In this document: piece after piece, positions 35,891-63,043 of the stretch | How the letters are laid out: every line of letters starts with the position of its first letter | Position numbering within the stretch: the first letter of the stretch is position 1 | Assembly: GCA_001574975.1 (NCBI GenBank) | Contig: KQ965751.1 | Location: 331,805 to 395,804, forward strand | From: Gonapodya prolifera JEL478 | Lineage: Eukaryota; Monoblepharomycota; Monoblepharidomycetes; Monoblepharidales; Gonapodyaceae | Length of the DNA: 64,000 nt | Reading direction: 5' to 3' | The notes under the pieces: generated by a model | Told to the model about the DNA's origin: nothing | The model's database searches: none | The model's input: the letters and a program-made list of their open reading frames with translations, nothing else | Program-made: the position numbers and the translations under genes

Positions 35891-35905
35891 CACTAGCCCA
35901 CTCCC

Positions 35906-38870: not shown

Positions 38871-39047
38871 GCTCTCCTACAGCCTCTCGGGTAACATTAC
38901 GACAACTCCACACCTATTTTTTACACAACCCTGGACCAACCATTATTTTACTTAATAGTCTATTTACTTATTATTTTGATAAGTAAATTAATAAGCTAAA
39001 TAAACTATATCTAAAATATATGAGAGAATGCTATGAAGTCAGAGGGG

Positions 39048-39460: not shown

Positions 39461-39502
39461 CAACAATTGTGGCTATGCAACATGACTTTAAAAAAATAAT
39501 TA

Positions 39503-40403
39503 TCACAGTTTAAGGTCCGTGATAAGTTTCTGAATCTCCTCCGCCGTGACTTCAAATGGCCGATTCTCGCCCTGATCATCAAACCACAGTTGAGCCCGCT
39601 TCGCAGATTTCTTAATCTCGCCACAAATGCGCCCCGTCTCCTTACGAGAAAGCTTCTCATCCCCATTGTTTGCATTAAGGAGGTAGCTCGTTAAATCGGC
39701 ATCCCGGCTTTGGTGACCAGTGGCACGGTCATCCAGGAAACCATAGACGCCTCGGCCTTTGAGCTGATTGACGGACTTTCTCGTCAGGCTCAGGTTTTCA
39801 TCGACATTCACCACCTCTTCACGGAGAAGGTCAACAATCTGGTTGTGATCATCCTTCCCTAGATCCGCACGTGCCACGACATGAGCAAAGCACTGCTTCT
39901 CGAAGATATGGTCAAGCTCATAGGCCGACACGTCCCCGACCAAGTCAATTGGTATGGCAGTCAGGGTAAAAGGATCCATGAGGGTGTGGTCTGACTGAAG
40001 CTGGTGAATGAATGTACTTCGAAGGTAATCTTTCCCAAAAGTGTTTGGATCAACGCGAACGATCCTCGGGTGTGCTTTGCGCAACAGTACTTATAATTGT
40101 TCTTCGGTCGCTTGTAGCACTGTCTGTCACCAACGACCCCAAGGCATTTGATGTAGTGGTACTGGCAGCGTCCATCGTTGTCCAGTCCTTTCTGTTCGCA
40201 ACATATCTTCCCATTCTGCGGATGACTCCGCAGAATGGACGCTCTTGCCATTCATGGCGCCCGCAATATCCATTCTTTAAGTATCCGTGGACACCGCAGC
40301 GACCATTATCAATTTTAACACCATTGCACCTCGGTAACTGTGTGTGGTGGGCAGAAGAAGCGCATCGAAAGTTTTTTTGCCGAGTCGTGGGAATGAGAAA
40401 CAT
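39503..40403 (-). pseudogene. Cys/His-rich repeat protein with a DH-containing C-terminal domain, frameshifted
   Basis: Read from 40403 downward, the sequence has repeated units of the type C-x(n)-G-RC-x2-H and YC-x2-H: PRCNGVKIDNGRCGVHG, NGYCGRHEW, DGRCQYHYIKC, KYCCAKH. Each could bind zinc. The frame changes near 40215 and again near 40085, so three frames are needed. The last frame (to 39503) carries AYELDHIFEKQCFAH, which resembles an HNH-type 'DH' segment, then a helical region. Function unknown; a DNA-binding nuclease-like protein is one possibility. Confidence 0.45.
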
Positions 40404-44089: not shown

Positions 44090-44127
44090 GGAGTAGAGCT
44101 GTTACAAAGTAACCAGGACTGGCGGGC

Positions 44128-44372
44128 GCAGCTCTGTCTCTTGTATGGTCTCATTCATGGTCTCAACTGGTCTGAGATGCATTCCTCTACATTTTATTTA
44201 GGAGGAGAAGAAGTTGGACACTTTGTAAAAAGCATGGTCTCTATGATCTGGGAATCTGAGCCACCTTGGACATTGGTGGAACTGCTTTATGGTTCAATAG
44301 CAGGTTTCTTCATGGTTTCACTTTTGGTCTCTCTCAAACAGTCTGAGATGCATTCCATTTAGATTTTTTCAG
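44128..44372. repeat. Fragment of the foldback repeat
   Basis: Carries the same modules as 38670-38870 (GGTCTCAACTGGTCTGAGAT, GTTGGACACTTT, AGCATGGTCTCTATG) plus a further unit ending CAGTCTGAGATGCATTCC. It lies directly beside the left end of the chromovirus. Confidence 0.7.
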
Positions 44373-44394
44373 CAATGATATAACATCACCCTTC

Positions 44395-44628
44395 TGTGGT
44401 AGAACTGATACTTGATCAGCCTCCTAGGGTTATCCAAAGGGTAGCAGCGGGACTAGAGAGGATTGGACAGAGAGAGAGATGGTAGTATGTGAGATAGATG
44501 TGTATTGGTCTAGCTAAATGAGGCTCCTGAACATATTAATAGTGGTGCCTGAAGCTACCTTTATGCCCCATCCTACCCAAAGACTTCAGTAGTTCCTACT
44601 AACCCCTTCGAGTGTTAGTTCCACTACA
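44395..44628 (-). repeat. Chromovirus 3' LTR
   Basis: 234 bases beginning TGTGGTAGAACTGATAC and ending CCACTACA on the plus strand; near-copy of 52868-53107. It is the 3' LTR because the genes read on the minus strand. Confidence 0.9.
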
Positions 44629-44640
44629 CCTCCCCTCCTT
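44629..44640 (-). other. Polypurine tract of the chromovirus
   Basis: On the minus strand the purine run AAGGAGGGGAGG directly abuts the 3' LTR, the usual primer site for plus-strand DNA synthesis in LTR retrotransposons. Confidence 0.75.
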
Positions 44641-44929
44641 ATGGAAGGCTGGTGTCCGCACCAGGAGTATGTTCAGACCATGTACACCCCGACATGCAAA
44701 ACCCATTGGGAAAAAAGCATTGTCGGTTGGACTGCAAACTTGTACAGGCACGGTTTGACAGCCCTCATAGGAGAAACCCTTGGAGTAAAAACTCCCGTCA
44801 CAAGTAGATCCTTTTCGGGACACCAATCTGTAAGAGTAAAGGTGGACCATAATAATGAAACGTGAAGTGGCTGAGAGAGGTCGCCCCTTCCTGTAAAGAG
44901 GTGTCCCCACCAAAACAGAATTAATTCTT

Positions 44930-46435
44930 GTTCCAGGCCACATGAGCACTTTTCCGAGACGCTTTGCGTTCTGAGGAAGTGACTGGAGGTCTCGGAGCTT
45001 GAGGCTTTTTAACTTTCCCTGGAAAGTTCAGTCGCTCATACTCCTTGATCATAGCTTTACCTTGGATATCGTAGGCAAATGTCCATTCAGGATCATCATA
45101 GCCTCGAAATTTTACAAGGTACTGCGTGTTCTTGCTGTGACCACGTTTTGCCCAAATGTGTTCCATTTCGTACTGTGGTCTACCATCAGCATGTGAACCA
45201 ATAGGGGAAACAAGGGCGTCCTCCTTGGCACATCCCGCAGGAGACGACCAGTCCTCTTCAAGAGATGAAGCGGTCACTGCCAGTGCAGTTTGTGCATCCA
45301 GCGGCAGAATGTACGCTGGCTCCTTTCAAAGGCGAGTCACGAGCAAGAGCTGGTTGCCCAGTGCGAACATGCACAAGACGGTAGGTGACGGGCGTAACTT
45401 GTTCTGTAACGGTGTAAGGGCCAGCCCAGTATGAAGCAAACTTGGTACTGTCCCCTTTGCAATGAGCTTCCTTAACGTAAAGCATCACCGTACCGCCAAT
45501 AACAAATGTAACGTCTTGTTGATGACGGTCGAAAGCTTCCTTGCGTTTCGCCGCAGACGTCTTCATACGCTCACGGACCTGTTCATACAACTCAGCCAAT
45601 AACTCTGTAAAAGGTAATTTATCACCATTGTGAAGTGACAACTGCTGCTCAACACCGGCGATTACGTCTGTTGGTAGTTGAGGCTCTGTACCAGTGGCAA
45701 GTAAAAATGGAGCGTAGCCGGTGGTAGAGTGCACGTGAGAATTGAGCGCAAACTGAATGGGCTGTACAAAAAGGTCCCAATTTGTTTGGTCTTCATTGTT
45801 GACGTACATGTACAGAGATTGGACAATGGGCTTCATTATCCTCTCAGCGTACGGGTTCCCTTGTGGGTGACCCGGTGATGAGAAAGTATGACAAAACCGA
45901 AGCTTCTTGCCGAGGTGTTCCAAAACCTTGGTAGCAAAGGCGTTATCACTGTGGAGTCTCTTGAAGACACCCCAGTGATAAACCCATTCATTGAGTAAAG
46001 CATACGCGGTTGTTGCCGCAGAGGTGTCAGCTACTGGAATGAGCTCGACCCAGCAGGTAAACAAATCAACCACTACCAAGATGTACGAGAGTCCACCAGC
46101 TGTGGTGTGGAAAGGTCCGACGTGGTCGATTGCAGCGTCGTCCCATGGCTGAGAGACCAAGAAGTCGTAGGGAATAAGCTTGCCGTGGTGCTTCAGTTGC
46201 AGTGGTTTCCGGCTTTGGCAAGAGATGCATTGCCCGACGTAGTAGTGTATGTCTTGAGCCATGCAGTACCAATAAAACTTGGGCGACATAGCCGCAATCA
46301 TTGACGTCGCTCCAGGGTGTGCAGCAGTAAGATCTTTGTGGTACATCCATAAGATCTCTGTCCGCTTGGACATTGGCACAACCACTGGTAGGTCACCCTT
46401 GAGCTGCTTCAGCAGCACTCAAGATGCATCCGTAG
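44930..46435 (-). pseudogene. Chromovirus integrase with C-terminal chromodomain
   Basis: Integrase block (about 46418-45258): an HHCC zinc-binding start (YHKDLTAAHPG; CISCQ), then DHVGPFHTTAGG, HSDNAFAT and GHPQGNPYAERIMKP carrying the catalytic D, D and E. After a frame break near 45270 comes the chromodomain (about 45180-45000; YEMEHIWAKRG, YLVKFRGYDDPEWTF), which directs integration to modified chromatin. A TGA separates the block from the upstream RNase H frame near 46422. Confidence 0.85.
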
Positions 46436-47315
46436 CTTTGGCAGGTTCTCTAGAGCAAAATGCAGACCAAACAAGAAGACCGTTGTGAATTTGCATGCCC
46501 TTTGAGCAACGGACATACTCTTTCCACTCCGGGGAGGAGAGTAACTCTTCCTCCACCTTGTTTTCGAGGACCATGAAAATCTGCAATAGCTCAGGGTCAT
46601 TCCTTTGAGATGTGCAAAATGAATCGCGGTACTCTTCATCATCCCAAGAAGCACCAGAGAAGGCGGTAACCGTGGATGGTTTTGGCGTGGTGCGCTCTTG
46701 GAGGTGGCACTTGTGGGCGTTGAGGGAATTGACCCATGCAGGGATTTTATCCTCTGGCGCGGCATTGTTTTCTCCATTGCCGGCAGTGGGGATGTCAAAA
46801 GAGACATTTAGATTGTCTTGCTGTGGGTTCTTGAGGCGTGAGAGAGCGGCGACTTGAGCCTGAGTAGGGCCGGGTTTGTAGACAGGTGTATAGGCGCACT
46901 TAGACATTCGGATCGCCCAACGTGCCACTTTGCCAGTACTCAAGGGGTTTTGCAGCCACTTGAGAGATTTGTGATCGGTGTGAAGTTTGAACAGCGCTCC
47001 TAAGAGGTAGTGCCAAAAGAATTCACAACCCCACAGGGTGGCAAAAGCCTCTCGCTTGTGAGTATCCCAGTGTTGCTGAGTGGGAGTGAACTTCTTGGAA
47101 CCATACCCCACAGGATAAGGTTTACCACAATTGTCCATCTGCTCCAGCACAGCGCCAGCAACGATACTGGAAGCATCTGTCTTTAAAACAAAAGGACGAT
47201 TGTAATCGACTTGTTGAAGTACACGCCCCAGTTTGGTAAGCATTGTCTTGAAAGTCGTGAAGGCCTTCAAAGGAGTACCACCCGAACAATCAACCTTCAT
47301 GCCTTTAACAGTCAT
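46419..47315 (-). pseudogene. Chromovirus RNase H region
   Basis: RNase H motifs are visible: FVLKTDASSIVAGAVLEQ, THKREAFATLWGCEFFWHYL and TDHKSLKWL. The frame ends at 46419 with a TGA just before the integrase block. Confidence 0.85.
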
Positions 47316-47360
47316 GTCAGATAGCAGGGCAGCAATCTCCGCAAATCAAGGAATGAAATG

Positions 47361-48265
47361 TCAATAGTATCTGGAGAGACCCAAGAAGTGTTGCAATTCC
47401 TTGAGATCTCGTGGTGGGTTAAGGTTCGCCACCGCGTTAACCTTTTTGGGGTCCATCTTGATGTTTCTGTCAGAAGTAAGTACGTGACCCAAATATGGTG
47501 TCTCGTGTTGACAGAAGTTGCATTTTTGAGCATGGAGCTTGAGGTTGGCCTTGCACAGTCTTTCGAAGATCTGCTCGAGGTGTGCAAGATGTTCTTCAAA
47601 GGAGGCGGAAAAGACAAGGATGTCGTCAAGGTATACAAGGCAAGATACCCAATTCATGCCCCGAACAACGCGATCCATGAGGCGTTGGAAAGTTGCTGGT
47701 GCATTTGTAAGCCCGAAATGTCACACTGACATCCACTAATGTGGAGTATATAGTGTAGTATGAGTGTTGGGTATTAGCTGCTGTGCCGCTACTGTGGCCG
47801 CGGGTTTAGATGTGCACACCTGCAGGACGTGCCCTAAGTTTGGCATCACGTTCCTGCAGGTGAGTTCTATGCACATCACATCTTGCTATGTACATCTGAT
47901 CATATATACACGTTCCTGCAGTTTACAGGCTCATGCAGCTCACCTAGGTTGTGTAGCACAAAAGGCATTCAAACGAACTCGAAGAGGCCTTCATGCGTAG
48001 CAAAGGCCGTTTTAGGACTGTCCTTTTCAGCAATTTCAATGTTCCAATAGCCCGAAGTGATGTCAAGCGCCGTGTAATACTTGGCGTCTTTTGTTGTGTT
48101 GATGAGGTCATTGATACGTGGGAGAGGGTACTGGTCGCGTTTTGTTATAGCATTCAGTGTGCGATAGTCAATACAGAAGCGGAGTTTCCCGTCCTTCTTG
48201 GGGACCATCACCACTGGTGCCCACCATGGTGACATTCTTCGTTGGATGATTCCATCCTTGAGCAT
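47361..48265 (-). pseudogene. Chromovirus reverse transcriptase, split by a 242-bp insertion
   Basis: The first part (48265-47969) has KKDGKLRFCIDYRTLNAIT and YPLPRINDL. The second (about 47718-47361) has FGLTNAPATFQRLMDRV and the catalytic YLDD (VYLDDILVFSA). Between them lies the insertion at 47719-47960, preceded by a TGA at an expected Arg codon. Confidence 0.88.
47719..47960. mobile_element. 242-bp insertion inside the reverse transcriptase
   Basis: On the minus strand it begins TGTGCTACACA and ends GTGTGACA, and it is flanked on both sides by TTT (plus strand AAA at 47716-47718 and 47961-47963). Inside are repeated GCAGGAACGTG / CCTGCAGG motifs. It has no coding capacity. It could be a small non-autonomous element or a solo LTR; the type is not resolved. 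Confidence 0.6.
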
Positions 48266-48633
48266 CTTCTTGCAATGTTCACCAATGGAGTTGGAGTCAC
48301 GCTTGCCCGAACAAAAGCAAGGGACCGAAATGGGTCTAGCATCGCCTGTATTGATCTCATGCTGAACACCTTGAGCAATGCCAGGTATGTCCCCAACACT
48401 GAAGATGTCTTTATTGCGTATGAGGAATGCTTGTAGACGGCCTACTTGCTCGTCAGTGAGTATGGTGTTGAGAGGTCAAGGCCATCGATGTCGTCACAGG
48501 CAGTACCCAAGGTAGGGTTGGCCATAGCCGTCATAAGGATTCCCTGGCGATCAAACTCCAAGACAGGCTCTGCGTCTTTGGGTCTGGCCTGTAAGACAAA
48601 AGTCTCGTACTCAGTATCGTCAATTTTGGTGCA

Positions 48634-49300
48634 TCAGGCTATTCTTGTTCCCTTGGGGATGATAACCGGACGGTCTGACCAGTTCTCGATTCCGACCGCG
48701 ACAACTCCGTCTTTGACATGGCAGAATGAGTTAGGCACGGACAGGTTATCCCTTGCTGTAAGGATAGGATTGGCCAGAATACAGACGTTTGCCCCTTCTA
48801 GTTTCTTGTGGACATGGTGTTCGAGTGGGGTGACGGTTGTGAGGGTTCCCAGGCCAGCCGGGAGTAACATCTCCTTTGTGGTGACCATAGTGAACATTTC
48901 AGCCGTTGTTCGCACTGTGCGTCGGACTGCGGCTAAGGTCATTGGGGGTGTGTACTGGTGGTACTGGATCTGGGCGTTCTTGCAGAGGGGAAAGCAAATA
49001 GTCATCTTACACATGTCAAGAATAGCACCGCTTCTTTGTAGATAGCCTGTGCCCAAGATCACGTTGTAAGGAAGACTGTCGATGATGTTGAAAGTCACTG
49101 TACAGTGACCAAACCCGTTGATGTCAATGGGCATTATGACGCGGCCCGTGGGTTGCATGGTACTACTGTTACCAATGGTGATGTTAAGTCGTTTGTCGGT
49201 CATCATACAAGGGTACTCGGGGTTGCCATGCACAAAGCAATGGTAAGTCTCGTAGCTCACGCACTCGACATTGGCACCAGTGTCGGGTAGGCCCTCAACA
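48634..49300 (-). pseudogene. Chromovirus aspartic protease region
   Basis: The active-site motif LPDTGANVECV is followed by GFGHCTVTFNIIDSLPYNVILGTGYLQ, matching retroviral-type aspartic proteases with the second conserved ILG segment. A TGA near 49300 separates it from the linker frame 49755-49306. Confidence 0.8.
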
Positions 49301-50797
49301 ATGGCTCAATCGAGGTCAGGAAACCTGGAAAGGTGCACACAAACTTTGCATGCAACGTGGTCCACGTAGAGGTTGGGGTCAGCACCGTAGTCAGTGTTCT
49401 CGATGACAACCGGTTTGTGTGACTCAGATGCTTCAATGTTCATCTCAAGTGGTTCCGGCTGGGCGCAGGGCACGGCAGGGTGGTTGCAGTATCTAGTGTG
49501 CTTAATAACATTGCGCTTTTGTCTGGCGTTGACAGGGCGTTTTGCAGGAGGTTTGGTCCCATCTTCATCAGATGAGTCCGACTGGGTTTGTTTTTTTGGC
49601 AAGTATTTCTTGTAGTACGCAAGGAGGTAATCAAGATCAGAGACCTTATCAGGTTCTCTGTCACCCTGTGGCTCTGAAGCCCCACCAGGCATAGACGGTA
49701 CCACCAGTTGGGCACGCTGTTGCGCTGATGGTGGATTGGGCTGTGAGGAGGCCACTTCCCCGGATATGCTTGGGTATGTGCTTGGCTCAACGCATTGTGT
49801 TGAGGAGCTCCTGGAGGACAGGCAGGGATCCGCTTCGACTGTCGGGCTGGGTGAGAGGCGACAGAAGGGAAACCGTTAGACTTAGACGCCATGCATGAAG
49901 CGAAAGCATAGTTTGGAACGTGCGCAGCAAGGGGGAAAAAGCAGTCGCTGGTCCCCGAGGGGTCCATTTGCCTGCAAAAGCCCAGTGGCTGAGTCCCTGA
50001 AGGGTCCGACAGACGCTGGTGGGAGGCCAACCAAGGTGATTACACAGTCATTTTAGCCCAACAACTCTCGTGATGCTCTTTATACCACCTGGGTTTTCCC
50101 CAGTGCCACTGTATTGCAAGTGTTCACATCATGTGACAACAGTCAGTCACAACCCTGTTTGGCGGTTGTCGTGAGCAACGTGAACGTTAGTCCTGTTAAC
50201 GTGGGCAGGGTGACTGGGCAACAATTCCTCCATCAAGGTTTCCACGTGGGGCACACCTGCAGAGTGTACAGCTGCGTGACGGTGCAATGAGTGGTACACA
50301 TCACAAAACAAAGCAAAAATCTTGTGGTGTGCGCCGTAAGCGTGGTGCAGTGGGATAAACAAATAGAGCATGTTTTAAACTATGCTCAACGCGAAGGGGA
50401 GGCCTTGCTCTCATGTGCGGGACTGGCAAATACACCGCGACCGGTGCCCCGGATTGGTGCCGTTGCCCGCCTTATGCGCGCGACGCCCTTTCCCAACACG
50501 GCTCGAGTCGACTTACAGCGCATAGGCCAGCATTGCTCGCGTTTCCTTGTCAGCGTGGGAGTGCACAGCAAGGGCCCTTCAATCCACCCATTAGGTGTGG
50601 GACGGTACCATATCGAATGGCTTTTCAGTCTAGCTTTATTGTAACCCAAGTAACTAAACACACTGTACAAGAGTTGCTAAGCGTACTCTAAGTAAGAAGG
50701 GTGCTTGTGCTACCCTGCAGTGTAATGCCCAAAGTGCCGTGTACCTCCGTACGGTCGTTGCCCTGGCAACAACCACCCAGTGTGCCAATTGTCCTAC

Positions 50798-52365
50798 TCA
50801 TTTCCTATAGAAAGGTCCGTTCCTGTCATCACGCCTGTTGTCAGGGTCACAACTACCCTGGTAGTCACGATCACCCTGACGGTCATGACGCTTGCCCTCT
50901 GCTGTGAGAGCCTTGATCCCTGCCGCAGTGTAGCCACTGTACTTGCAGCTCCGCACGGTGTGGTTGTCCAATCCACAGCGCTTGCAGCCTTGGCAACGGG
51001 GAGAGGGGGAACGTCGGTGAGAAGATCCACCCCTGTTGCAGTTGTTGTAATCACAGAAGTGAGAATGATTTCCACATGGGGGCAACCGGTCGCAGTCCCA
51101 AGGGCGGTAGTCCTGCTTCCGGTTGTTGTTGTTGCTGTTGCCCTTTAACTTCTTGCCATTCATTTGGCCACCCTCATCATTAGGAGCAGCATGCTTCATT
51201 GGCGGTGCAGGTGGGGTCTCGGCATCGATGACATGCACGTGTGCCGCAGGTGCTGGGGGAGTTGAGGCTGTAGTCAAGGCTATGGCTGGGGTAGGCGCTG
51301 GCGCCAGTGGCTCGGCCTTCCCGCCAGGCTTAGAGGCGAGCTTCTTCTGGGGCGTCATGTGCCTCGCGCAAGCAGTGAGCTGCTCGATATCCTCAATGAA
51401 GTTGAAGTGGAGTTGCTGGGCGTGGTCCTCCACCTGGATCCATTGCTCAGGCGTGAGTGCGTCACAAAAGCGGTTGATGGCCGTACTATTGATGAGGGCC
51501 TGGTTGGGGTGAGGCTGGTGGAGAGACGCGGGGTTGAGGTGGGTGTAGAAGTTGCGTGCGTTGGTGAGGCAGTCCCATGCGAAAGTCTCAGCAGAGACAG
51601 CCTGTCCAGTAGCGTCGACGTTCCAATACCCGGACATTGCACAATGGCGCATCTTGTCAAGGTAGTGGGGGGAGGCGTGGACGGCGATGACGAACTGAAA
51701 CTTTTGCTTGGCTGTGCAAGGGGGAATCGGCCACTGCGAGGTGTTGGGGTACAGATGTACCGGGCAGGGGCACTGCAAGGGGTCCTTAGTGGTAAGCCAC
51801 CCCAGGAGGTCTTTGCAGGTGACCATCTTGATGATGACCCTTGTGATGGCGGCATTGTTGGCGTGCTCCGCCTTGGCGTTCATTATGATACGCTTGGCAC
51901 TGCCCAGTACGTTTGACGGGTCAAGCTTTTCAGTGCAATGGTTCTCGAAGTGGATGTTGGGTTTCTTGTCGTCGTCCAAGAAGCCGTCAGCAACTGCGAC
52001 TGGATGGACAACCAACTCTTCAGGTTGAAGAGGTAGGATGATGGACTGTGGTGGCAGCGGCAATAGCGTCGGAGGGGTTTGCCGGAGGCCGCTGACGCGA
52101 GATTGCACAGCGGGAGGGGTATCCAGATTGATTTCCATTGAGTCCACACTCCTAGTGAGGTCTGAGATGCGCCACTCCTTCTTCTTGCTGCGAATGTCAG
52201 AGCGGGGTGATGTGGACGCACTCACGCATTGGGGTGAGGTTGCGGGAGTTGCTGGGCAGCCAAACTTGAAGCAGCAGGGGGATTCACTGCGGGGGAAGGG
52301 GTGTCTGGCAGGAGGGAGTCGAAGGACGCGTTGGTAGGGTCTCCGTTGTTTGACATTGTGAGTGA
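50798..52365 (-). pseudogene. Chromovirus Gag with zinc knuckle
   Basis: The start MSNNGDPTNASFDSL at about 52355 is in a different frame from the main body. The body runs to 50798 and includes a capsid-like region and, near the end, a CCHC zinc knuckle (CQGCKRCGLDNHTVRSC) followed by a basic Arg/Asp-rich tail. A frameshift near 52220 breaks the protein. Confidence 0.75.
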
Positions 52366-52867
52366 TGTGCGGCAAGATTTGATGGAGCAATGAGAGGAGA
52401 GAGAGTTGATGATTGGCAGCAAGGACGAGTTTCCAGGGCTCAATGGTGGGTACAAAGCAAGAGAGAGAGCAATGGGTCCCGGAGAGACTTGAGGAATGAG
52501 TAATGGAGCGAGATTGATGAGTTGGTGGCTTGGAGTTTTACAGTGAGGAGCGATGCGGGTAAACTGTAGATCCGCGATTGTGCCGAGTGGTCGCGATCGG
52601 TGAGCGCTAGGGCTAGTGAGAAGCTCAGAGACGGTTAGAGCACAATTGAATAAGTGTGAATAGCGATCGGTGTGTAGGAATGATGTGGGGGGGAAGTGAC
52701 AATGTACGATGTGATGAGGATTGAACTCAACCGTTAAGCATCCCATACGCAACGATGCTACAATCCCCAGCGCTGCAACGTCCCTTGCTGGTCTCCGAAT
52801 CTCCAGAATGGTCCGTGGCAGACAGGATCCAAGATTGATGAGTCGGGTCCTGGTCGTCCCCCCAAAA

Positions 52868-53107
52868 TGTCGTAGAACTGATACTTGATCAGCCTCCTAG
52901 GGTTATCCAAAGGATAAGTAGCAGTGCCGGACTAGAGAGGATCAGACAGAGAGAGAGATGGTAGTATGTGAGATAGATGTGTATTGGTCTAGCTAGATGA
53001 GGCTCCTGAACATATTAATAGTGGTGCCTGAAGCTACCTCTATGCCCCATCCTACCCAAAGGCTTCAGTAGTTCCTACTAACCCCTTTGAGTGTTAGTTC
53101 CACTACA
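52868..53107 (-). repeat. Chromovirus 5' LTR
   Basis: 240 bases starting TGTCGTAGAACTG and ending CACTACA on the plus strand, near-identical to 44395-44628. Transcription of the element would start here and run leftward. Confidence 0.9.
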
Positions 53108-53459
53108 CTTCAGGTGACAGTGTGCGATACAAGATCACAATCACACAACGTAGTCAGTTGGATAACGTGTCTCACCTGTCACAGAGTATGGGCGATTCTA
53201 CCTTGGTGATGGATACAGTATGAAATGGGGCCAGTACACCTATTGCGCGGAAGCACGGAATAGTGCAGGCATGTCTCCTATTCACAATGTGCCAGACGTG
53301 TCTGTACGTCAGACAAATGTTGCTAGAACAGTGGAGGAGAGTTCCAAATACGAAAATGAGCAGTCTTGTTAATTTTATGGTATGCAAAGACACGCTCCAC
53401 ATGCACAATATGGCATGGCGTGACTCATAGTGCTGGAAGGAAGTCTAAAATAAAATTGT
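53108..53459. other. Spacer between chromovirus and D5 locus 2
   Basis: No gene or repeat recognised. Begins with the CTTC target-site copy of the chromovirus. Confidence 0.5.
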
Positions 53460-56187
53460 TTGCATTTCCAAACAAAGCCAAAACGCAGAGATTTTTCCTT
53501 GCACATATTCCAAATGCACTTCTTTGTCTGTTACAAGGGCCTCACCAAAAAGGGGGAACCTCCCATAGAGCTCTCATGGTCACTGGCAGAGTTTGAAGAA
53601 CACCACACTTTGTACCCACATCTTTTTGGGAATTAGTGGGCAGTGGCACTCCCTTGGACAGCATCAAGCCATACTTTGACTTCGATATCAGGTGGAACCC
53701 CACCAAGCATCCAACATCTACTTCAAGGACCCCTACAAACGTAGAGAGGCAGGAAATCTACACATGGTTCAAGCGTCAAGTTCTTTGCGTTTGCGGCTCT
53801 CTTCCCGACTGCGCAAGGCTCATTTATGCATACAGAGAGCCTGCACTGCTTGCAAACGGCGACACCAAGATTTCATATTGTGTTTGGATAAACGGCACCC
53901 TCACATTGTGCAAGGCTCTCTCCGTTCTCAAAGATGATATTGCGGACTTCAGCAACGCCCCTGAGTGCATTCGCTTGACAACACACAAAAAGTCTTCGTG
54001 TGCATTCAACGTCTCTGTTTACGAAGGGAGCACGCTAAATCTTCCAACAAAGACAACTGACATGGATGATGACTGCCTCCTCATACCAGAACCTGGAGTT
54101 CCATTATGTGACTTTCTGGCAACAAACATTGATCCGTCTTGGCCTGTCATCGTGATACAGGAAAACAGCCTCCAGTGAGCAACAAGGTGCACCGGTGAGA
54201 GAGCTTGCATGCACACCAAGGCAACACTGCACTGGAAAGTCACACAATACCACCACTTCTCATGGAGCACTTGAATGCAAATGGATTCTACCACAAAAAG
54301 GCACACAAAATTCTCTACTACAACGAATCAAAGACATTTGCAGTTCAGACTGGTGAAAAGTACTGCGCTTTTGCCAAGCGCGAACATGTTTCCAATTATC
54401 AGTACCTGACAATCTCAAGCACTGGTCAGGTGACTCGAAAATGCCACGACAAAGAGTGCAAAGGAAAGACTTGGTCAATGATTCCGCTTGCTCCAGAGGT
54501 ACTACAAGAGCTTATGAGTACAGTTGAGGTTGACGTGGATCCTGAGGTCGTGTCACTAGCAAAACGGGAAGCAAGCTTGAACGTGTGCAAAGTCTTTGCC
54601 GGCAACAAAGGAATGGACATCCAGCATGTCAAGGAGAGCAGAATGCTGAAAGGTCAAATGCAGAAGTTCTTTGGAAAAATTTGCTGTCCAGTTTGTGGAA
54701 GTATTGCCATCGCCTACACAACAATTGAGGACTGGTACATATTATGCACAGGGTGTGGCGAACGACTACCAGGACGTTCAATGTCACATTTCGAGATCAA
54801 GAAACAATTTACAAATCTCGCAGAGCTCTTTGCACATAGCTGAAATGCAAAAATCAACAACATGAGTGTTAAACTTGCTGACGTTTTGTCATTGGATGGC
54901 TGCTTTAGTGAGCATTACAAAATATTCCCAGATCCAGAATTGAACAGAATTGTGTACAAGGTCATTGATGGATCTGGTCATCCAGCAGATCTATTTTGTT
55001 ATATTGAGCGGAATCAGCTGCGTGTCACAAAGAATAGTGAATGGTGGGAGTATACAGGACATCAATGGGCAAAGGTCTTCTCCAAAAACTTGAGTGAGTT
55101 TTACTGCAGAAATGTACTCCAATCCTCACTTGAGACAGCTTGGGCATTCTACAAGGATCTGGCAACAACAGGCAATAATGACATTGAGCTGAGAAAGAAG
55201 CAAGTCAAAAAGATCGTATCTGTACTCTCACGCATTATTCATAAGGAACTACCTACGATTGCTCTCTTTCAGCAAATTGACCAAGAATTCGAATTGAAGA
55301 TAGACAGCAAGCGGCATCTCCTCGGCTTTGACAATGGTGTGTATGATTTTCCGTGCAGTGCTTCAGAGCAGGAAACCCAGATGACTATGTCAGTATGACT
55401 GTCGGCTATGATTGGTGAGACACCATGGACCCCAAGTTCAACAAAAAAGTTTCATTTTTTTTTGAGGAGATACAGCCCGATAGAGAGCAACAAGCATACC
55501 TCTTTACTTATCTTGCAATAATGGTGCACGGAAGCAAAAAGGATGAGATTTTCACCATTTTCAGTGGCGGGACTCACAATGGAAAAAGTGCTATTGCAGA
55601 CCTTATGAAGGAAATGCTGGGTGAATACTGTCTCATGGTGGACTCGAAGATGGCAACTGCAGAATGACCATCACTTGGATCACCGCAACCCGACCTCATT
55701 GAGCTGGTGGGAAAGCGGGCTATTTTCATCAGCAAGCCACAGAAATTGGGAAAGAACCAGTCAACACTGAGATTGAACAGCACATTCATCAAGCATATCA
55801 CTGGGAACAACACAATTTCAGCCTGGGCATTGTATTCGAATGACATCTTGCACTTCAAGCCTCATTTGAAGCTGACAATCATGTGCAATACCATACCAAC
55901 CATGGACGCAGACAACAATGCACTGTGGGTGCAAAGTCGTATTATTGACTTCCCAGTTACGTTCACAGACAATCCAACAAAACCAAACAAGAAGCTTATC
56001 AACCGAAATCTGAAGGACGAGCTTGTCACCTGGCGCCTGTCCCTTGTCAAAGCCCTTATTCAAGTTAACCTCAAGGTGTACGCCAAGCATGGATTGGTTC
56101 CAACAAAAGCCGTCTTAGCAAAAACGAGACAAGTATGAGAGGAGACTGACCCGTGGTTGCGGTTCTGGGTGGAGTGCATAGAACCAG

Positions 56188-58967
56188 CAAAGAAATTTTT
56201 GAGCAAGTTACTCGCTCATTTTAAGGCAACTTGTACTTGCTCGGACCTTTGGTGCTGCCAACTCGCGAGTTGCGAGTTGACGGCTTTTGCAACTTGCAAC
56301 TCGCTTGGCTGAATTCGGCTAAATCACCGCTCTTCATTGAACAATGCGTTTTTGTTCAGCTCAATAGCATTAAAACTATCTAAACCGTACATGAAATATC
56401 TGTATAATTTTGCTTCCACTTTTTCAACAAAGTTAGATTTCTAATCATCTCCACCCCCAACCTACACCTCCTGTCCCCTATCACCTCCTTGGATGCAAAG
56501 AAGATCCGTTCCGATTCTGCACTACTCCCTGGAACTCCCATTATTGTGCGTGCAATCTGTTGGAGTCCCGGAAGGTCATTCCGCAACCTCCAATACTCAA
56601 GCACATCCTGGTCCTTCCCTTGCCGTGGTTCCTCCAGGTACTGCTCCATCTCTCCCTGTGTGTTCCCTTTGCCCAAGAATTCCATTTCCAAGCCGTCGTC
56701 CAAGAAGGCGGGGTTCCCCTGAGGTGTTACGAGTGCACCCGATGATGCAACACGATCAAGCTCACCTTGGAGGAGTTCCCTTGCCTGCCCAATGAGCTCC
56801 TGCTCCCAGTTCTCTTCCGCCATCCATCCGAGCTTGAGCGATGGGTGGAGGACTGACGATGGGTGAAAATCAAGGAGTTAATACCGAAATCAACTTCCCC
56901 CTTGCCTGACCGAACTCACCAACAGAGAGCATATAAAGCCGCAAATCGTCCGTTTTTCCGTAGTACGTCTGGAGTTTGCTCAGAATGATACTCTGCGTAT
57001 CCTCCAAACATTGTTCCCTGCCAAAGTCTGCGTCCTCAAGTCTATCCATCACCAAGTTGAAGACTGGGACCACCATATAGAGGGTTGGGATCTTGGCAGC
57101 CTCAACTTTCTTTAGGGCAAAGGCAAGGGGCTTCAACGTGCATTAGATTCCTTCTCAACTGAGCAGTAGAGGGAACATTCACCATCAGAAGCACCTTCAT
57201 GTGCTTCAAGTATTCCCAATCCACATCCGTCAGTTTCCACTTCCATAACGCCTTCTCCTTTGTAACAAGCTTGTTGATTTCAATGCAGTCCACAAGTGCC
57301 CAAACGATTGCGTTGTAGTCAGAGCGCCATCTTGTTTCGACTGGAGCAACCAGTTCCCATGAATGCTTCAAGGGGTTGGTAAATTGAGCAGCGTACTTCT
57401 CGCGGAGTTGAGTGGTATGTTGAATCCTGAAAATGATGCAGTAGAGCTGCAATCAGAGTGAAAAAGTAGTGATAGAATGTGATAGAAGAATGTGGGAAAC
57501 ATCGGAAACTCACCTTTTCCACTGGTCCTTGTCCCGATTCCATTGCCTCCACCATGCTCTCTTCATTGATAGTCGGAATTTGGAGGTTGGCAAGGCCGGC
57601 CTTCACCGCAATGTTCAAAATATGCGGAAGGCATTGCACATGTGAATCGATGGCGTCAAAGTCCTTGTTGATCCCGTCCATGTCCGCCATCGCACGCATC
57701 ATGGTGTTGTTGTTGCTCCCATTGTCGGTGGTGACAGAAAGTAGCTGTTTGTGGAACGATTGTGAAATTGAAAAACAGCTAATTCGCGAATTGATTCCAC
57801 TTACCTTATGAAATACTCCAAGCCTCCTCAATGAGTCCGCAACATGGCCTGCAATTTGTTCTCCGGTATGTTGCCCCTTGACATGAATGAAATCAAGCAG
57901 GATGGACTTGAGTGTCCAATCCTGCCCAATCCAATGACCCGTCACAGCCGCAAAAGAAAACCTGGAATCCCAAGAGGTCCACATGTCCGTTGTAATTGAT
58001 AGCCTTTCACAGTCAGTCTGTGCAAAAATTCAGTTGAAAAACTGAGAGCAGGACCACATCCAACACTTACCTTCAAGAGCTCTCCGAAATGACACCCTCC
58101 ACCCTTGCCATCTCCCGTGGGATGTCAAAACGAATCATCTCAATGCTAATTTCAGGTGGATTGTGGTGGAGAACTGCAAGAACCTGCCGGAACCATGGAT
58201 TCTCCACCTTGGAGATGGGCTGGTTTGAGCAAGCCACCCAGTTTAGAAGGCGGCTCGCAGCCGGTCCACGTCAACACTCTAATGTAGTGTGTCATTAGTA
58301 TGTAAAAAGAACAAGCAGACCACTCACTTTGTTTCGCTTCCGCTTCAACTTCAACGTGTCCTCAAGTGTTGGTTGGCGGATCATCTCCGGTTTCAGCTCT
58401 GCAAGCACCCTCTCATCCTTGATTGAGTTGGCGTGGTATCGTTTGACGTGGATTTGGAGAGTTGTCATCGATTTCTGGTTGGTCATATCGTATCTGGGTT
58501 TGGCCAGTCACGCACCCACACCCAAACCAAAACGCAAGGCCTTCAAAATTAAACACTCACATTGCTCCATTGAATCCATTTTTCCCCTTCTCCAAACAAA
58601 TTGCGCGGGTTTGCTTGCCTTTCGCCTGTTTCTTGAAGTGGTCATCCCGGAACACCCAAGAGGCCGGCCGACGGGTGCTGACACGTGGCTTGCAGTCCCT
58701 CCAGCCGTCTGCATCGATTGTATCCGAGAGTTCTGAATTGGAGACGTTGATGGCGGGGGATGGGGCCTCAGACATGTTTGTATGGGTGTATATTATTTAG
58801 GCCACAATATTAGTTACAAAAAAAGAGTGCGAGTTGACAAGTTAACTCGCGAGTTGAAAACGATCAACTTGCAACTCGCTATTTTTAAAAACCAACCAAC
58901 TCAATTTGCTTCGAGCGAGTTGAGCGAGTTTTTGAGCGAGTTTTTAACTCGCTCAAAAATTTCTTTG
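56188..58967 (-). mobile_element. hAT-superfamily transposon, 2,780 bp, with inverted repeats and target duplication
   Basis: Terminal inverted repeats CAAAGAAATTTTTGAGC (56188-56204) and its reverse complement (58951-58967) are perfect over 17 bases. An 8-bp target duplication flanks it: AGAACCAG (56180-56187) and AGAACCGG (58968-58975), one mismatch. Both ends carry an array of AACTCGC/GCGAGTT and AACTTGC motifs (56205-56310 and 58825-58950), a likely transposase-binding region. It encodes its own transposase on the minus strand. An 8-bp duplication is the hAT hallmark. Confidence 0.9.
56380..58775 (-). CDS. hAT transposase, nearly intact
   Basis: Exons read from ATG 58775: a BED-like zinc-finger region (DDHFKKQAKGKQ; LQIHVKRYH), then VEGVISESS, SITTDMWTSWDSRFSFAAVTGHW, LLSVTTDNGSNNNTM, CLPHILNIAVKAGL, WELVAPVETRWRSDYNAI, and the dimerisation domain (VLEYWRLRNDLPGLQQIARTIMGVPGSSAES, quoted in part) ending at 56380. 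Catalytic acidic residues sit in the TTDMW and TTDNG segments. Introns have GTGAG-type donors. One junction near 58080 does not keep frame in my reading, which may be a mis-set splice or a real break. Confidence 0.78.
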
Positions 58968-59936
58968 AGAACCGGCGCATGATTGCAACCTATATTTCAG
59001 TACCATCACAACTACGTACAATGCTTGGGCGCGTCTGAAAGGATACCATGGAAGTATGGCTTCAAGAGGAATCAGAGCCAAGCTCGAGAATATGCACTTG
59101 CGTGTGGGGCGTCTCAGAGAAAAGAAAAATCCCAATTTACAACACGGAGTATATGGTCATAGATTGACAAAGGATGCTCGAGAGATACTAAACGTCCCAC
59201 AGACTCAAAACCTCAAAGCGGCAGAAACCGTAACATCACTTGCGACAAGGTTACATGGAATGATCGATGCCAATTTGGCATGGCATATCATCTGCAAGTT
59301 TCAGATTGAGGATGGCGACAAGCAGCTCCCACGGCTACTGGACAGTAGTGAAGTGAGGGTCCTATGTGGAAACATTTCTGAAACAATACTGGCCAACGCT
59401 CTCTGCCCAAATGAGCACAAAAGTTGGAAGACATCTTTGGAACTGCAAAATGACGTCTCTCAAGACGAAAAGGATTCAGGCGTGGCATACTTCACACCTC
59501 GAACGTCAGACATACAAAAGGCTGTTGAATTCATAATAGAATCTACTAGAGTCTCTACTTGGATCAGACCAAGGGACAATTTCACGTTAACAGTTGACGA
59601 AAAGTTTTATTGTGGTGAAGTCACTGGGAGAGTGGACTTTTGGGCAATGCGAGATGGGCACGTCTTTATTTTGGAGTGCAAGTTCTCGTCATCTGACATA
59701 CCCGTGGGTGGGAGTCACTACTGGCAACTTTTGTTGTACTATATTTGGGGTTGCCGTATGCAAGGGGCATCCAAGTGCACAATTGTCTTTTGTAATGTGA
59801 GAACTGGAATGGTTCTTGTTGGTACATTCAACTTGAATGCATTCCAGCTGTAATAATATAATACACTTTATATTTTCCTTGCCATCTGACAACCAGCGGC
59901 ACGGAGCCACTTCCTCACACTGAAAGTATTTACCCC

Positions 59937-60509
59937 ATGGGACCTGACTGCGCCACATTTCCGATGGACGAACGAAAAGAACCCACGGCTTTCACGGATT
60001 CGAGCCACGCCAGTGTATTTGGCCCCGCTCCCATTCAGCCATATGTGACGCTCAAAATAATCAAGTGGAATGCACGAACAACGACTAACATTGTTCAAGA
60101 GTTTTGCGTCTTCCTCACTGAATCGAAACGACTGCACATTCCAAGTGTACTGCAGTCATTGGGTATTAAGGAGCTCTATATGATTGCACCAGACAACGCC
60201 AGGGAGAAAACGCTGATTCCATTTCACCAAGATGGCTTACCATTTCCAACATTTAGCTCTGCACAAGTACTGTTCATATCAGGTCCAGCTGTTGAAAGTA
60301 AGTTAAAAAGGTTATCTTGGTGCGTAAATATTGAACGCACATACTTGCCACCAGCCCCGCCACGGGAAGTTGCGTTCAATAATGCCACCAAGGATGGCGT
60401 AATGAGCGATTTCGGAATTTCGTATGGCAGTCCTCTGGATAACACGCCAATCACTGATTATGAAGTCCCATCAAGTCTAAGTGCGTTTGGTCTACCATCA
60501 TACTCCTGA
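59937..60509 (+). CDS. Hypothetical protein of unknown family
   Basis: A 190-codon open frame from ATG 59937 to 60509. It contains VTLKIIKWN, ESKRLHIPSVLQSLGIKELYMIAP and a Pro-rich stretch (YLPPAPPREV). A GTAAGT-like site near 60299 could be a donor. No domain is recognised. It lies between the nuclease end of D5 locus 2 and the REase-like gene, on the same strand; it could be an N-terminal part of the latter. Weak support. Confidence 0.35.
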   Translation: MGPDCATFPMDERKEPTAFTDSSHASVFGPAPIQPYVTLKIIKWNARTTTNIVQEFCVFLTESKRLHIPSVLQSLGIKELYMIAPDNAREKTLIPFHQDGLPFPTFSSAQVLFISGPAVESKLKRLSWCVNIERTYLPPAPPREVAFNNATKDGVMSDFGISYGSPLDNTPITDYEVPSSLSAFGLPSYS

Positions 60510-60584
60510 GTGGTCTTAACATGCCAACCAACTCTTAGTTTCCTATTTAAACTTGTTGAGCAGATTTCATACTTTAAGGTCCGA

Positions 60585-61224
60585 GAATTCCCGACGTCCA
60601 ATCATCCAGTGGTATATTTTGACTGCGTTGGCAAACGTTGAAGAATTGCACAACCTGAGGATTGACGAAGAGGCAACACTTAGCTGTGTGTTGCCGGCAA
60701 CTCAGGGAAGAACTTCCGTGAGGTAGTTTGGTCAGGCTGATTTTGCTATTGGTCATAAAAAGAAAGATGACAGGTGCGTCACTTCTTCTTTGCATGAGGA
60801 AGATGTATTTCAATCATGCTTTTTTTGTTGCAGGCTTCTGGAGGATACGCTCTTAGTCATTGTAGAGGCAAAAAAGCAGGGTACCTATACAATTGCTGAG
60901 CCACAACTTCTTGCAGAAGTTGCTACCTGTCAGGAAAGAAGGCTTAGAAAGGGCTATCAAGGCACTGTGTATGGGATTATAACAGATGGAGAAATGTGGA
61001 TATTTGTATCTATTGACAACCAGAAACGAATGCATTGGAGTGAACATATCAGTGTGACAATATTGGGGAACATGCAGGAAGCCGCAATCAAGAAAGTATA
61101 TGGGATCCTTGTGAAGATTTTGTCGGAAGCAGTGTCTGGCAGCCCACGCGCATCACTGGTTGGAGAGAATCTGCTTTTCAACAAATTAGCAAAAGAGCTT
61201 AGTGATAACAATGGTGACAAATAA
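60585..61224 (+). pseudogene. Restriction-endonuclease-like (PD-(D/E)XK) protein, one in-frame stop
   Basis: The frame from about 60585 reads SENSRRPIIQWYILTALANV and continues to GRTSVR, TAG (near 60727), then FGQADFAIGHKKK. An intron (about 60773-60833, GTGCGT...GCAG) joins to LLEDTLLVIVEAKKQGTY, AEPQLLAEVATCQ and GYQGTVYGIITDGEMWIFVSI, ending at 61224. Asp in QADF with ExK in VIVEAK forms a PD-(D/E)XK active site. This layout resembles nuclease domains found in large expanded fungal families, including Crinkler-type effectors. That link is inference; no Crinkler N-terminus is visible. The single TAG suggests recent inactivation. Confidence 0.6.
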
Positions 61225-61534
61225 ATCGGGTTTGGGCATTCCAATGCGTACCTTCTACGAGGGGTTACATACAGTTTACATGCATTATTCAAGTTCCTGT
61301 TTAGCTTGTTTTGATACTGCGAGAGATCTCCTCCAATGTCAATCTCAGTCCCCATATGTAATCTCTTGGCCGAGTTGTACTCGTGAAAAGTAACTTCACG
61401 TGCCACTGTAACCCTGGGTGGAGATCGAACACATCATGACTATCGTAAACGGTTCCGCGCCGCACAACGAATTGCACAGTGGAATATAAAAAGCGACAAG
61501 CGCCAAACAAATTCCAGAGCAAATCCAAACCCAA

Positions 61535-62104
61535 ATGAGCAAAGCGATTGGTGGAATGTTTCAGCGTGGTCTGATGCTCGAGAAAGATTTGAAGATGAAT
61601 GAGGCGATCACGAGCTTCATGCTTGCAGCAAGTCGCATGGACAAAGAAAGCATGTACAAACTTGGAACACTGCTTGAATTGGGTGAGCATGTGCCACTTG
61701 ACTACTCGCATGCGAGAACGTGGTACATCCTTGCGGCACGAGGAACTGGAGACGAGCCACACGTTAGAGCGCAATACAAACTTGGTTATTTCTATGAGTT
61801 TGGGCTTGGTGGGGAGAGTAACATGGATAAAGCACGAAAACTGTATAAGCTTGCCTCCGAGAAATTTAATGCAGACGCGCAGTACAAAGCTGCATACTTC
61901 CTTGAGCACGGAATAGGTTGCGAGAGAAACATGGCCGAAGCGCGCAAATATTACACACTTGCAGCCAATCAGAATCACAGCGAATCGCAATATGAGCTGG
62001 GGCGGCTCTCCCTTGAATGCGACAAAGACCCATTAATGGCTGAATTCTACTGGACATGGGTCGCAAACAACGGACTTCTCGATGTGTTAGAAAAGAATAG
62101 ATGA
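61535..62104 (+). CDS. Sel1-repeat protein
   Basis: A single 189-aa open frame. It contains Sel1-type (TPR-like) repeats: ESMYKLGTLLELGEHVPLDY, AQYKLGYFYEFGLGG..NMDKARKLYKLAS, AQYKAAYFLEHGIGCERNMAEARKYYTLAA and SQYELGRLSLE. Each unit has the A/G-x-Y-x-L-G...A-x-x-x-Y/W pattern and forms a helix pair. Such proteins act as adaptor scaffolds. No signal peptide, so probably cytosolic. Confidence 0.85.
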   Translation: MSKAIGGMFQRGLMLEKDLKMNEAITSFMLAASRMDKESMYKLGTLLELGEHVPLDYSHARTWYILAARGTGDEPHVRAQYKLGYFYEFGLGGESNMDKARKLYKLASEKFNADAQYKAAYFLEHGIGCERNMAEARKYYTLAANQNHSESQYELGRLSLECDKDPLMAEFYWTWVANNGLLDVLEKNR

Positions 62105-62203: not shown

Positions 62204-63043
62204 CTACAGCACCTCTATCATTTTCTTTGGCGCCCAGGAGTCGAGAGTCATCAAGAACCCACACTTTCGCGCCAAAAGGTGATGTCTGTACACGCTCCCC
62301 ACCAAATCACAATCGACTGATTCGACAATGTTCTTGACGTCCCGAGGGCGTGCATGATTGATGTCCATGTGCCAAATCCTACCAAGAATTGGAGTGCCTT
62401 GGAACCGTTCGACCGCGGTGAACACAAGTTCCTCAATGTCCGCCGCACCCCAGACTTCCTTCTCGCCAGGACCCGGTTTTTTGTAGTAAAGATGGATGTT
62501 TCGCGCCACAAGTGCCACCTGCATCGGAAGTCCTCGCCCAACCATGTTTGCTTCATTAGTGAGTCCGAGTTTGTTGTTCGCGAGAATAGAAGCGCGCGAG
62601 ATGTGACGAGTCGGTTTCTGGGGGGGAGGTAAACAGCTTACGCGAGACAATTCGCGCTCCGACGCCACATAAGGAGGTTCATCGTCGGCGTCGTTTGACG
62701 TGGGGATGGAAACGCGGATAGAAAGATGGGGAACAGAACTGCGATTTCCCAAACGACGTTTTGGGGAGAGAATGTTGAAGCCAGGCAAGTCGGAGGGAGC
62801 TGGTATGACGCCAAGTGCATCGACGAAAGTAATGTGGCATACGACGGGAACGCGTCCAAGAGGGTTGAGATCGCACTCGAGAACATCGCGGAGTTTTCTG
62901 CAGACCAAGCGCACGTTCACATATCTGTCATACTAGCGAACATGCGCCAGAACGCAAGACCAAATCTCCACAGGAAGGTCAGGGCATCTTCTTGCGAGGC
63001 GTTTTCGTGGCGGCTCGACGCTTTTTGCGCTTCTGGGGCGCAT
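62204..63043 (-). pseudogene. F-box protein with one in-frame TAG
   Basis: From ATG 63043 the frame reads a basic N-terminus (PPRKRLARRC) then PDLPVEIWSCVLAHVR, a TAG at 62935-62933, and YDRYVNVRLVCRKLRDVL, which together form an F-box. The frame then stays open to 62204 (SIRVSIPTSNDADDEP; NIVESVDCDLVGSVYRH). The stretch at 62645-62622 resembles a 24-base intron but is a multiple of three and reads through. F-box proteins bind Skp1 in SCF ubiquitin ligases. Translation could restart at the Met at 62920, losing half the F-box. One base change explains the stop. Confidence 0.65.

What the first reader, a model, noticed from the sequence alone, without database searches (positions are those of the whole stretch)
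53460..59853. Primase-helicase-nuclease fusion in an endogenous D5-like element
The D5-like C-terminal region runs without a stop into a PD-(D/E)XK nuclease domain (GRVDFW...ECKF) in one frame, 59056-59853. Together with the upstream AEP-type primase, zinc ribbon and SF3 helicase, this suggests one large replication protein combining priming, unwinding and cleavage. I am not aware that this fusion is standard for D5-like proteins of large DNA viruses.
Basis: partly seen in the sequence, partly recalled or inferred. Interest (0 to 1): 0.8.

Follow-up and report, generated by a model that had tools for sequence, protein, structure and literature searches.

The report
Broken viral replication gene with nuclease
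A fungal chromosome holds the decayed remains of a large-DNA-virus-like replication gene whose pieces look like a primase, a helicase, a DNA-binding domain and a nuclease in one row; a jumping gene later landed in the middle and the rest has rotted, so it is a fossil that hints at an unusual viral replication protein in fungi.

Summary
Window 53454-59853 (+) carries, in order, a primase-like piece, a zinc-finger-like piece, D5_N, an SF3 helicase (Walker A kept), a short helix-turn-helix-like domain and a Cas4/RecB-type PD-(D/E)XK nuclease. It is not an intact fusion: four in-frame TGA stops, three frame changes (two possibly introns) and a complete 2,780-bp hAT transposon (56188-58967) between helicase and nuclease break it. 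Siblings without the transposon support an original fusion: in C102 one frame runs from the helicase into the first half of the helix-turn-helix; decayed C26 keeps helicase, helix-turn-helix and nuclease start in the same order. The helicase is well supported, the nuclease moderately, the primase only plausibly. The host is a fungus whose genome also holds open frames for nucleocytovirus capsid protein, VLTF3 and D5; none was recognised beside this copy. Low CpG suggests decay by 5-methylcytosine deamination; methylation was not measured. The same helicase lineage carries a different primase (Prim-Pol) in C102, so the primase end may be exchangeable. New variant of a known kind.

The parts
53454..53633 (+). 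N0: start of the primase-like domain, in another frame than the next piece
   Evidence: 35 aa match at 37% (E 1.7e-6) to the start of the C167 relative
53597..54175 (+). P1: primase-like (archaeo-eukaryotic primase palm?) piece, 193 aa
   Evidence: 40% identity, E 2e-32, to a 486-aa open frame in C167 whose next frame is an SF3 helicase; no family match; fold model poor
54199..54840 (+). P2: zinc-finger / UL52-like linker piece, 214 aa; ends at a TGA
   Evidence: Herpes_UL52 E 0.0087, below cut-off; 37% and 33% identity to the two C102 D5 genes, 30% to C41, 71% over 69 aa to C67
54844..55395 (+). P3: D5_N domain piece, 184 aa
   Evidence: PF08706 1.6e-5, above cut-off
55419..55664 (+). P4: SF3 helicase, Walker A piece (NGKS), 82 aa; TGA on both sides
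   Evidence: PHROG 1156 5.7e-13; 54-66% identity to four sibling pieces
55668..56135 (+). P5: SF3 helicase, second half, 156 aa; TGA after it
   Evidence: PHROG 1156 5.7e-15; profile A2 matches vaccinia D5 at 8.5e-6
56139..56187 (+). P5b: end of the helicase up to the transposon, including the left 8-bp target-site copy 56180-56187
   Evidence: matches siblings in C91, C102 and C26 (the query ran on to 56309, so part of it and of the longer matches is transposon DNA); sequence
56188..58967 (-). hAT transposon inserted in the gene; transposase on the - strand, spread over several frames (introns or damage)
   Evidence: Dimer_Tnp_hAT 7.5e-13; 23-nt terminal inverted repeats 96% complementary; five other full or near-full-length copies at 88-95%; flanking 8 bp match at 7 of 8
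58969..59220 (+). helix-turn-helix-like C-terminal domain of the D5 gene (residues about 7-81 of the 294-aa frame; the name is my reading, no family match)
   Evidence: 51% identity over 75 aa to the end of a C102 D5 gene, where a stop lies inside it; also at the ends of two other C102 frames
59221..59853 (+). PD-(D/E)XK (Cas4/RecB-like) nuclease domain, same open frame as the helix-turn-helix; D223, E236, K238, Q253, Y257
   Evidence: PDDEXK_1 0.01, Cas4 0.0096, motif found in 1 of 214 frames

Best explanation
A decayed, virus-derived replication gene of the D5 kind. In its active past it most likely made one chain: a primase domain laying primers, a zinc finger, a ring-forming SF3 helicase (D5_N plus AAA+ core) unwinding the fork, a small helix-turn-helix-like DNA-binding domain, and a Cas4/RecB-type nuclease that trimmed or cut ends during replication, recombination or resolution. 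Shown: the order of pieces, the helicase identity, helicase running into the helix-turn-helix in a sibling frame, helix-turn-helix and nuclease in one frame in the window, and the transposon between them. Inferred: primase and nuclease activity, DNA binding, and the biochemical roles. After endogenisation the copy was probably methylated, lost CpGs, gained stops and frame changes, and was split by a hAT element. Nothing seen suggests that the host uses it.
For: Helicase. Third-position bias against three siblings (99 of 174, 87 of 135 and 119 of 195 differences at codon position 3) shows a long life under selection before decay. Nuclease. Fusion: C102 frame L015:8912-9457 runs from helicase into the first half of the helix-turn-helix; C26 keeps helicase, helix-turn-helix and nuclease start within 1.2 kb with no transposon, in decayed frames; window frame 58969-59850 holds helix-turn-helix and nuclease; the frames on both sides of the transposon are in phase by arithmetic on its length plus 8 bp. 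Viral setting in the same genome: C41 D5 with P11 minor capsid protein and VLTF3 within about 14 kb; MCP in C176 and C52. Decay: CpG o/e 0.51 in the primase-helicase stretch against 0.87-1.21 in 118 overlapping host windows; CpG in a sibling facing TG/CA here 18, 10 and 20 times against 2, 4 and 0 the other way (C102, C91, C26; partly the same signal as the low CpG).
Against: No single intact frame with all domains was found. In C102 a stop lies inside the helix-turn-helix and no nuclease match follows it, so the nuclease is not general to the lineage. Primase not recognised by any library or fold search, and a profile comparison with the C181 D5 N-terminus failed. Nuclease matches are below cut-offs, the whole frame has no Pfam match, and the fold models are poor (pLDDT about 41). 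No viral hallmark recognised beside this copy. CpG is also low in the gypsy and hAT DNA nearby (0.69, 0.70), and broken C26 has normal CpG (1.01).
Confidence: 0.72

Rival explanations
1. Two neighbouring genes: a D5 primase-helicase ending after the helicase, and a separate small gene with its own helix-turn-helix and nuclease, never one chain.
For: No intact fused frame was found. The helix-turn-helix-like module also ends two other frames in C102, so it is mobile. The nuclease frame has its own ATG at 59056.
Against: In C102 the first half of the module lies in the same open frame as the helicase end. In the window it shares a frame with the nuclease, and the frames on both sides of the transposon are in phase. 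C26 shows the same order.
Confidence: 0.18
2. The source was a smaller mobile replicon (polinton-like virus or plasmid-like element with an AEP-SF3 replicase) rather than a nucleocytovirus. This concerns the origin and can hold together with the domain order above.
For: AEP-SF3 fusions are known in polinton-like viruses (passages of PMC11071308, PMC12220804). No capsid or VLTF3 gene recognised beside this copy. D5 genes occur in tandem in C102 with other proteins sharing the C-terminal module. The helicase pieces resemble phage primases.
Against: The same genome holds nucleocytovirus-type MCP, and VLTF3 and P11 near a D5 gene. No terminal repeats of an element around the window copy in 50000-62000.
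Confidence: 0.25
3. The nuclease half was kept by the host as a small functional gene after the rest decayed.
For: It is the longest unbroken frame of the gene (294 aa), with all motif residues present.
Against: At the lesion rate of the helicase half about two lesions would be expected in 882 bases; none has a chance near 0.10 (my arithmetic), so the open frame is no evidence of selection. The 156-bp C22 relative shows no third-position bias (5 of 17 differences at third positions). CpG o/e is low (0.68).
Confidence: 0.07

Closest known systems
Poxvirus D5 / nucleocytovirus D5-type primase-helicase
   Same: D5_N plus SF3 helicase behind a probable primase domain; profile match to vaccinia D5 and D5_N; the C41 sibling matches ASFV C962R at 7e-7
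   Different: Helix-turn-helix-like domain and PD-(D/E)XK nuclease follow the helicase; the gene is broken; the primase part is not recognisable by profile
Phage/plasmid P4-family primases (TIGR01613, PHROG 1156)
   Same: Helicase pieces match at up to 4.7e-10 and 5.7e-15
   Different: Fungal chromosome; different N-terminus; nuclease at the C-terminus
Mriyavirus helicase proteins and PDDEXK endonuclease (PMC11253617, passages read)
   Same: AEP-SF3 helicase proteins, and a changed motif-2 histidine in some primases, as in P1 and C167 (by eye); a PDDEXK nuclease in most mriyaviruses
   Different: In the passages seen the mriyavirus PDDEXK endonuclease is described as a protein of its own; HUH endonuclease not looked for here
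Giant-virus endogenous region of Rhizophagus irregularis and NCLDV genes in Gonapodya and Allomyces (PMC10640383, PMC5294986; passages read)
   Same: Nucleocytovirus genes in fungal genomes; a D5 in Allomyces
   Different: The R. irregularis region lacks MCP and D5; neither paper was seen to mention a D5-nuclease fusion in the passages read
Cas4/RecB-type PD-(D/E)XK nucleases
   Same: D, ExK and QxxxY arrangement (motif recalled); weak Cas4 and PDDEXK_1 matches
   Different: Scores below curated cut-offs; attached to a D5 helicase

Membership tests
D5-type SF3 primase-helicase | D5_N domain | tested here: met
   PF08706 25.6 bits against cut-off 22.4
D5-type SF3 primase-helicase | SF3 helicase core with Walker A | tested here: met
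   NGKS present; N, G and K invariant in five pieces; matches
D5-type SF3 primase-helicase | N-terminal primase (AEP) domain | tested here: inconclusive
   Relative in C167 precedes another SF3 helicase; no library or fold match
D5-type SF3 primase-helicase | one continuous coding frame | tested here: not met
   Stops, frame changes and transposon
PD-(D/E)XK nuclease, Cas4/RecB type | D...(D/E)xK...QxxxY motif | tested here: met
   Present; 1 of 214 window frames, 2 of 20,000 shuffles; the pattern was written after seeing the sequence
PD-(D/E)XK nuclease, Cas4/RecB type | profile score above curated cut-off | tested here: not met
   16.2 bits against 22; 15.8 against 65; no Pfam family for the whole frame
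PD-(D/E)XK nuclease, Cas4/RecB type | fold | tested here: inconclusive
   Model pLDDT 40.5; strand-strand-helix-strand-strand order at residues 222-288; Foldseek uninformative
Endogenous Nucleocytoviricota element | hallmark genes (MCP, VLTF3, A32, P11) in the same island | tested here: not met
   None recognised in the frames scanned around the window copy (18 of 29 frames listed); D5, P11 and VLTF3 lie together at C41; PF04665 (A32) gave no match in the genome, which does not show absence
hAT transposon (the insert) | hAT dimerisation domain, terminal inverted repeats, 8-bp target duplication, several copies | tested here: met
   (7 of 8 bases)
Polinton-like virus | terminal inverted repeats and capsid genes around an AEP-SF3 gene | tested here: not met
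   The inverted repeats listed for 50000-62000 are the hAT ends and short pairs of 14-21 nt that I read as chance; no capsid match among frames scanned nearby
Mriyavirus | HUH endonuclease | not tested
   Not searched for

The most novel reading that the evidence does not exclude
A lineage of large DNA viruses of fungi replicated with a single-chain primase-helicase-DNA-binding-nuclease protein, in which the primase end is exchangeable: the same helicase lineage carries a Prim-Pol primase in C102 and a different primase-like domain here. The nuclease would be physically tied to the replicative helicase.
Probability: 0.33. Interest if true: 0.65.

Novelty: new variant of a known kind. Interest (0 to 1): 0.45.

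Why it matters
DNA viruses of fungi are known mainly from genomic traces; PMC10640383 states that no double-stranded DNA virus infecting fungi is known (abstract passage). This genome holds several kinds of D5 gene, capsid and late-transcription-factor genes in open frames, and other copies in decay, so it offers a series of what such viruses carried. A helicase tied to a Cas4/RecB-like nuclease would suggest coupling of replication with end processing or recombination. The CpG loss suggests that methylation may have helped to silence and erode the copy, as discussed for other eukaryotes (PMC12344493; passages of that paper report no support for a viral origin of methylated gene clusters in the fungi it examined).

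Tried and rejected
Viral relatives: six scans of viral contigs with the nuclease frame, P5, the C41 D5, A1, A3 and the C41 VLTF3 gave only three loci, at 32-35% over residues 5-70 of P4, which I read by eye as phage contigs from their other frames (output partly cut) and dropped. The nuclease frame found no relative in genome contigs, phages or plasmids or among PDB sequences. These scans reach close relatives only.

Fold models of P1 and of the nuclease frame were poor and the Foldseek lists were meaningless. Not used as evidence, except that strand and helix order is mentioned.

Repeat-induced point mutation (RIP) as the cause of decay: rejected for this stretch, since TpA/ApT is 0.50 and (CpA+TpG)/(ApC+GpT) is 1.52, opposite to the RIP pattern as I recall it.

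TGA stops as proof of CpG decay: only mild (4 of 4 here); siblings also carry TAG (C91, C26 and C22), so I lean on CpG counts instead. C26 has CpG o/e 1.01 although broken, which does not fit a single story.

Naming the host species: the size (47.6 Mb, 207 contigs) is near what I recall for Gonapodya prolifera, but no test was made.

Claims about print rest on searches only; papers were seen as search listings and as passages, none in full.

Full report
What is there. Window 53454-59853 (contig C21 of a 47.6 Mb genome) contains a row of open pieces on the + strand: N0 53454-53633, P1 53597-54175, P2 54199-54840, P3 54844-55395, P4 55419-55664, P5 55668-56135, P5b from 56139, and a 294-aa frame 58969-59850. 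P3 is D5_N (1.6e-5). P4 and P5 are SF3 helicase of the phage/D5 kind (5.7e-13 and 5.7e-15; P4-family primase C-terminus, 5.4e-6 and 4.7e-10, below that model's cut-off), and a five-row profile of P5 and sibling pieces matches vaccinia D5 in the PDB at 8.5e-6. P2 has a sub-threshold Herpes_UL52 match (0.0087).

The nuclease. The whole 294-aa frame has no Pfam family at E up to 1. In NCBIfam its residues 217-273 give Cas4 at 0.0096, and the domain alone (59335-59850) gives PDDEXK_1 at 0.01. Each is the only family reported there and each is below its cut-off; PHROGs gives only a family of unknown function (0.019). The frame holds D223, E236-x-K238 and Q253-xxx-Y257. A pattern for this arrangement (motif recalled, pattern written after seeing the sequence) hits 1 of 214 window frames of at least 100 aa and 2 of 20,000 shuffles. 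The fold model is poor.

The primase. P1 has no family match. Its one relative in the genome is a 486-aa frame in C167 (40%, 2e-32), followed there by an SF3 helicase in another frame (DUF5906 3.8e-13). By eye, both carry a D-x-D strand motif, a second motif without the usual histidine, and a third motif acidic in C167 but not in the window; a changed second-motif histidine also occurs in some mriyavirus primases (PMC11253617 passage). These motif names are recalled. A profile comparison with the N-terminal part of the C181 D5 failed. I call it a probable primase.

The transposon. 56188-58967 has 23-nt terminal inverted repeats (96%) and a hAT dimerisation domain (7.5e-13), and is flanked by 8 bp matching at 7 of 8 (chance 0.0004 for fixed ends and equal bases). 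Of 37 matches in the genome (a lower bound), one is the window copy and five others run end to end or nearly so at 88-95% identity. It is therefore an independent element that split the gene.

Was it one gene? In C102 one open frame (L015:8912-9457) runs from the helicase end into the first half of the helix-turn-helix-like domain; a stop then lies inside that domain, and no nuclease match follows it. In C26 the order helicase, helix-turn-helix, nuclease start is kept in 1.2 kb without a transposon, in decayed frames: the match to residues 7-145 is 34% with a poor middle, good at both ends, and 62 bp at 84% at the nuclease start. In the window the helix-turn-helix and nuclease share a frame, and the frames either side of the transposon are in phase when its length plus 8 bp is counted. 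C22 carries a 156-bp nuclease stretch (88%) after a D5 of another lineage. The nuclease part beyond residue 145 gave no other match in the genome at E up to 0.001. 'Helix-turn-helix-like' is my reading; no library named the domain.

How broken. In-frame TGA stops lie at 54841, 55416, 55665 and 56136. Frame changes lie between N0 and P1, P1 and P2, and P3 and P4; the first two could be introns. CpG o/e is 0.51 for 53454-56179, while 118 overlapping windows of the same length in 1-32000 range from 0.87 to 1.21. Where siblings C102, C91 and C26 have CpG, the window has TG or CA 18, 10 and 20 times; the reverse occurs 2, 4 and 0 times (partly the same signal as the low CpG). Against the decayed C67 copy the counts are 12 and 8. 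Other copies differ in CpG o/e: C67 0.61, C91 0.66, C22 0.73, C41 0.87, C26 1.01, C167 1.02, C102 1.07-1.09. The nearby gypsy and hAT DNA is low too (0.69, 0.70). A DNMT1-like methyltransferase fragment is present in C14. Methylation itself was not measured.

Selection. Differences from C102, C91 and C26 in the helicase pile up at codon third positions (99/174, 87/135, 119/195), so these lineages separated while the gene was working. Against C67 it is 61/143 (an alignment with 33 gap positions), and in the C22 nuclease stretch there is no bias (5 of 17), consistent with later neutral decay.

Relatives in the genome. D5_N has 10 matches. C41 has a 993-aa open frame with Prim-Pol, D5_N and DUF5906, near a P11 minor-capsid frame (4.7e-7) and a VLTF3 frame about 9 kb beyond it. 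C102 has D5 genes in tandem, one with a Prim-Pol N-terminus. Since P2 onward matches C102 while P1 does not at E up to 0.01, the primase end has apparently been exchanged within one helicase lineage; because P1 and P2 lie in different frames, P1 could instead be the remnant of another gene. MCP frames of 411 and 407 aa lie in C176 and C52; in the PDB the first is closest to PBCV-1-type capsid proteins, the second to the capsid protein of entry 8rbs and then to those. VLTF3 has 7 matches; A32 gave none. At least 52 Zn2Cys6 domains mark the host as a fungus (that the domain is mainly fungal is recalled).

What the host made of it. No sign of use was seen. The surviving nuclease frame is not surprising: seven lesions in 2,734 bases predict about two in 882, so none has a probability near 0.10 (my arithmetic).

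Compared with print. D5, DNA polymerase and other nucleocytovirus genes were reported in Allomyces, Gonapodya and Rhizophagus (PMC5294986, PMC10640383; passages). AEP-SF3 fusions are known in nucleocytoviruses and polinton-like viruses (passages). My searches showed no D5-nuclease fusion in the listings and passages seen, but the library is partial and no paper was read in full.

Noticed in passing
L016:3943-4146 and 6672-6872 (C102): The D5 helix-turn-helix-like domain also sits at the C-terminal end of two other long frames (296 and 664 aa) downstream of the tandem D5 genes; a shared, apparently mobile module.
   Followed up: partly
window 62204-62920 (-) and L030:5730-6566 (C22): A 238-aa frame is 95% identical (702 bp at 97%) to one in C22, where it directly abuts the nuclease fragment; 15 matches genome-wide (itself included), among them C167 and C117, which also hold virus-like genes.
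   Followed up: partly
window 60727-61221 (+): Frame with no second copy found, with an EAKK stretch reminiscent of Crinkler-type nuclease domains (by eye, recalled); no Pfam match.
   Followed up: partly
window 61490-62101 (+): Sel1-repeat gene (3.4e-28) just beyond the broken gene; CpG near normal (0.95).
   Followed up: no
contigs C176, C181, C195 (19-34 kb): Short contigs with open frames for MCP, a 975-aa D5 of another type, and VLTF3 plus a neighbour that looks VLTF2-like by eye; could be integrated or separate viral DNA.
   Followed up: no
window about 34001-40000 and 44001-62000: Long runs of low CpG (o/e about 0.5-0.8) covering gypsy parts, the viral gene and the hAT element, against about 1.0 in 1-32000.
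   Followed up: partly
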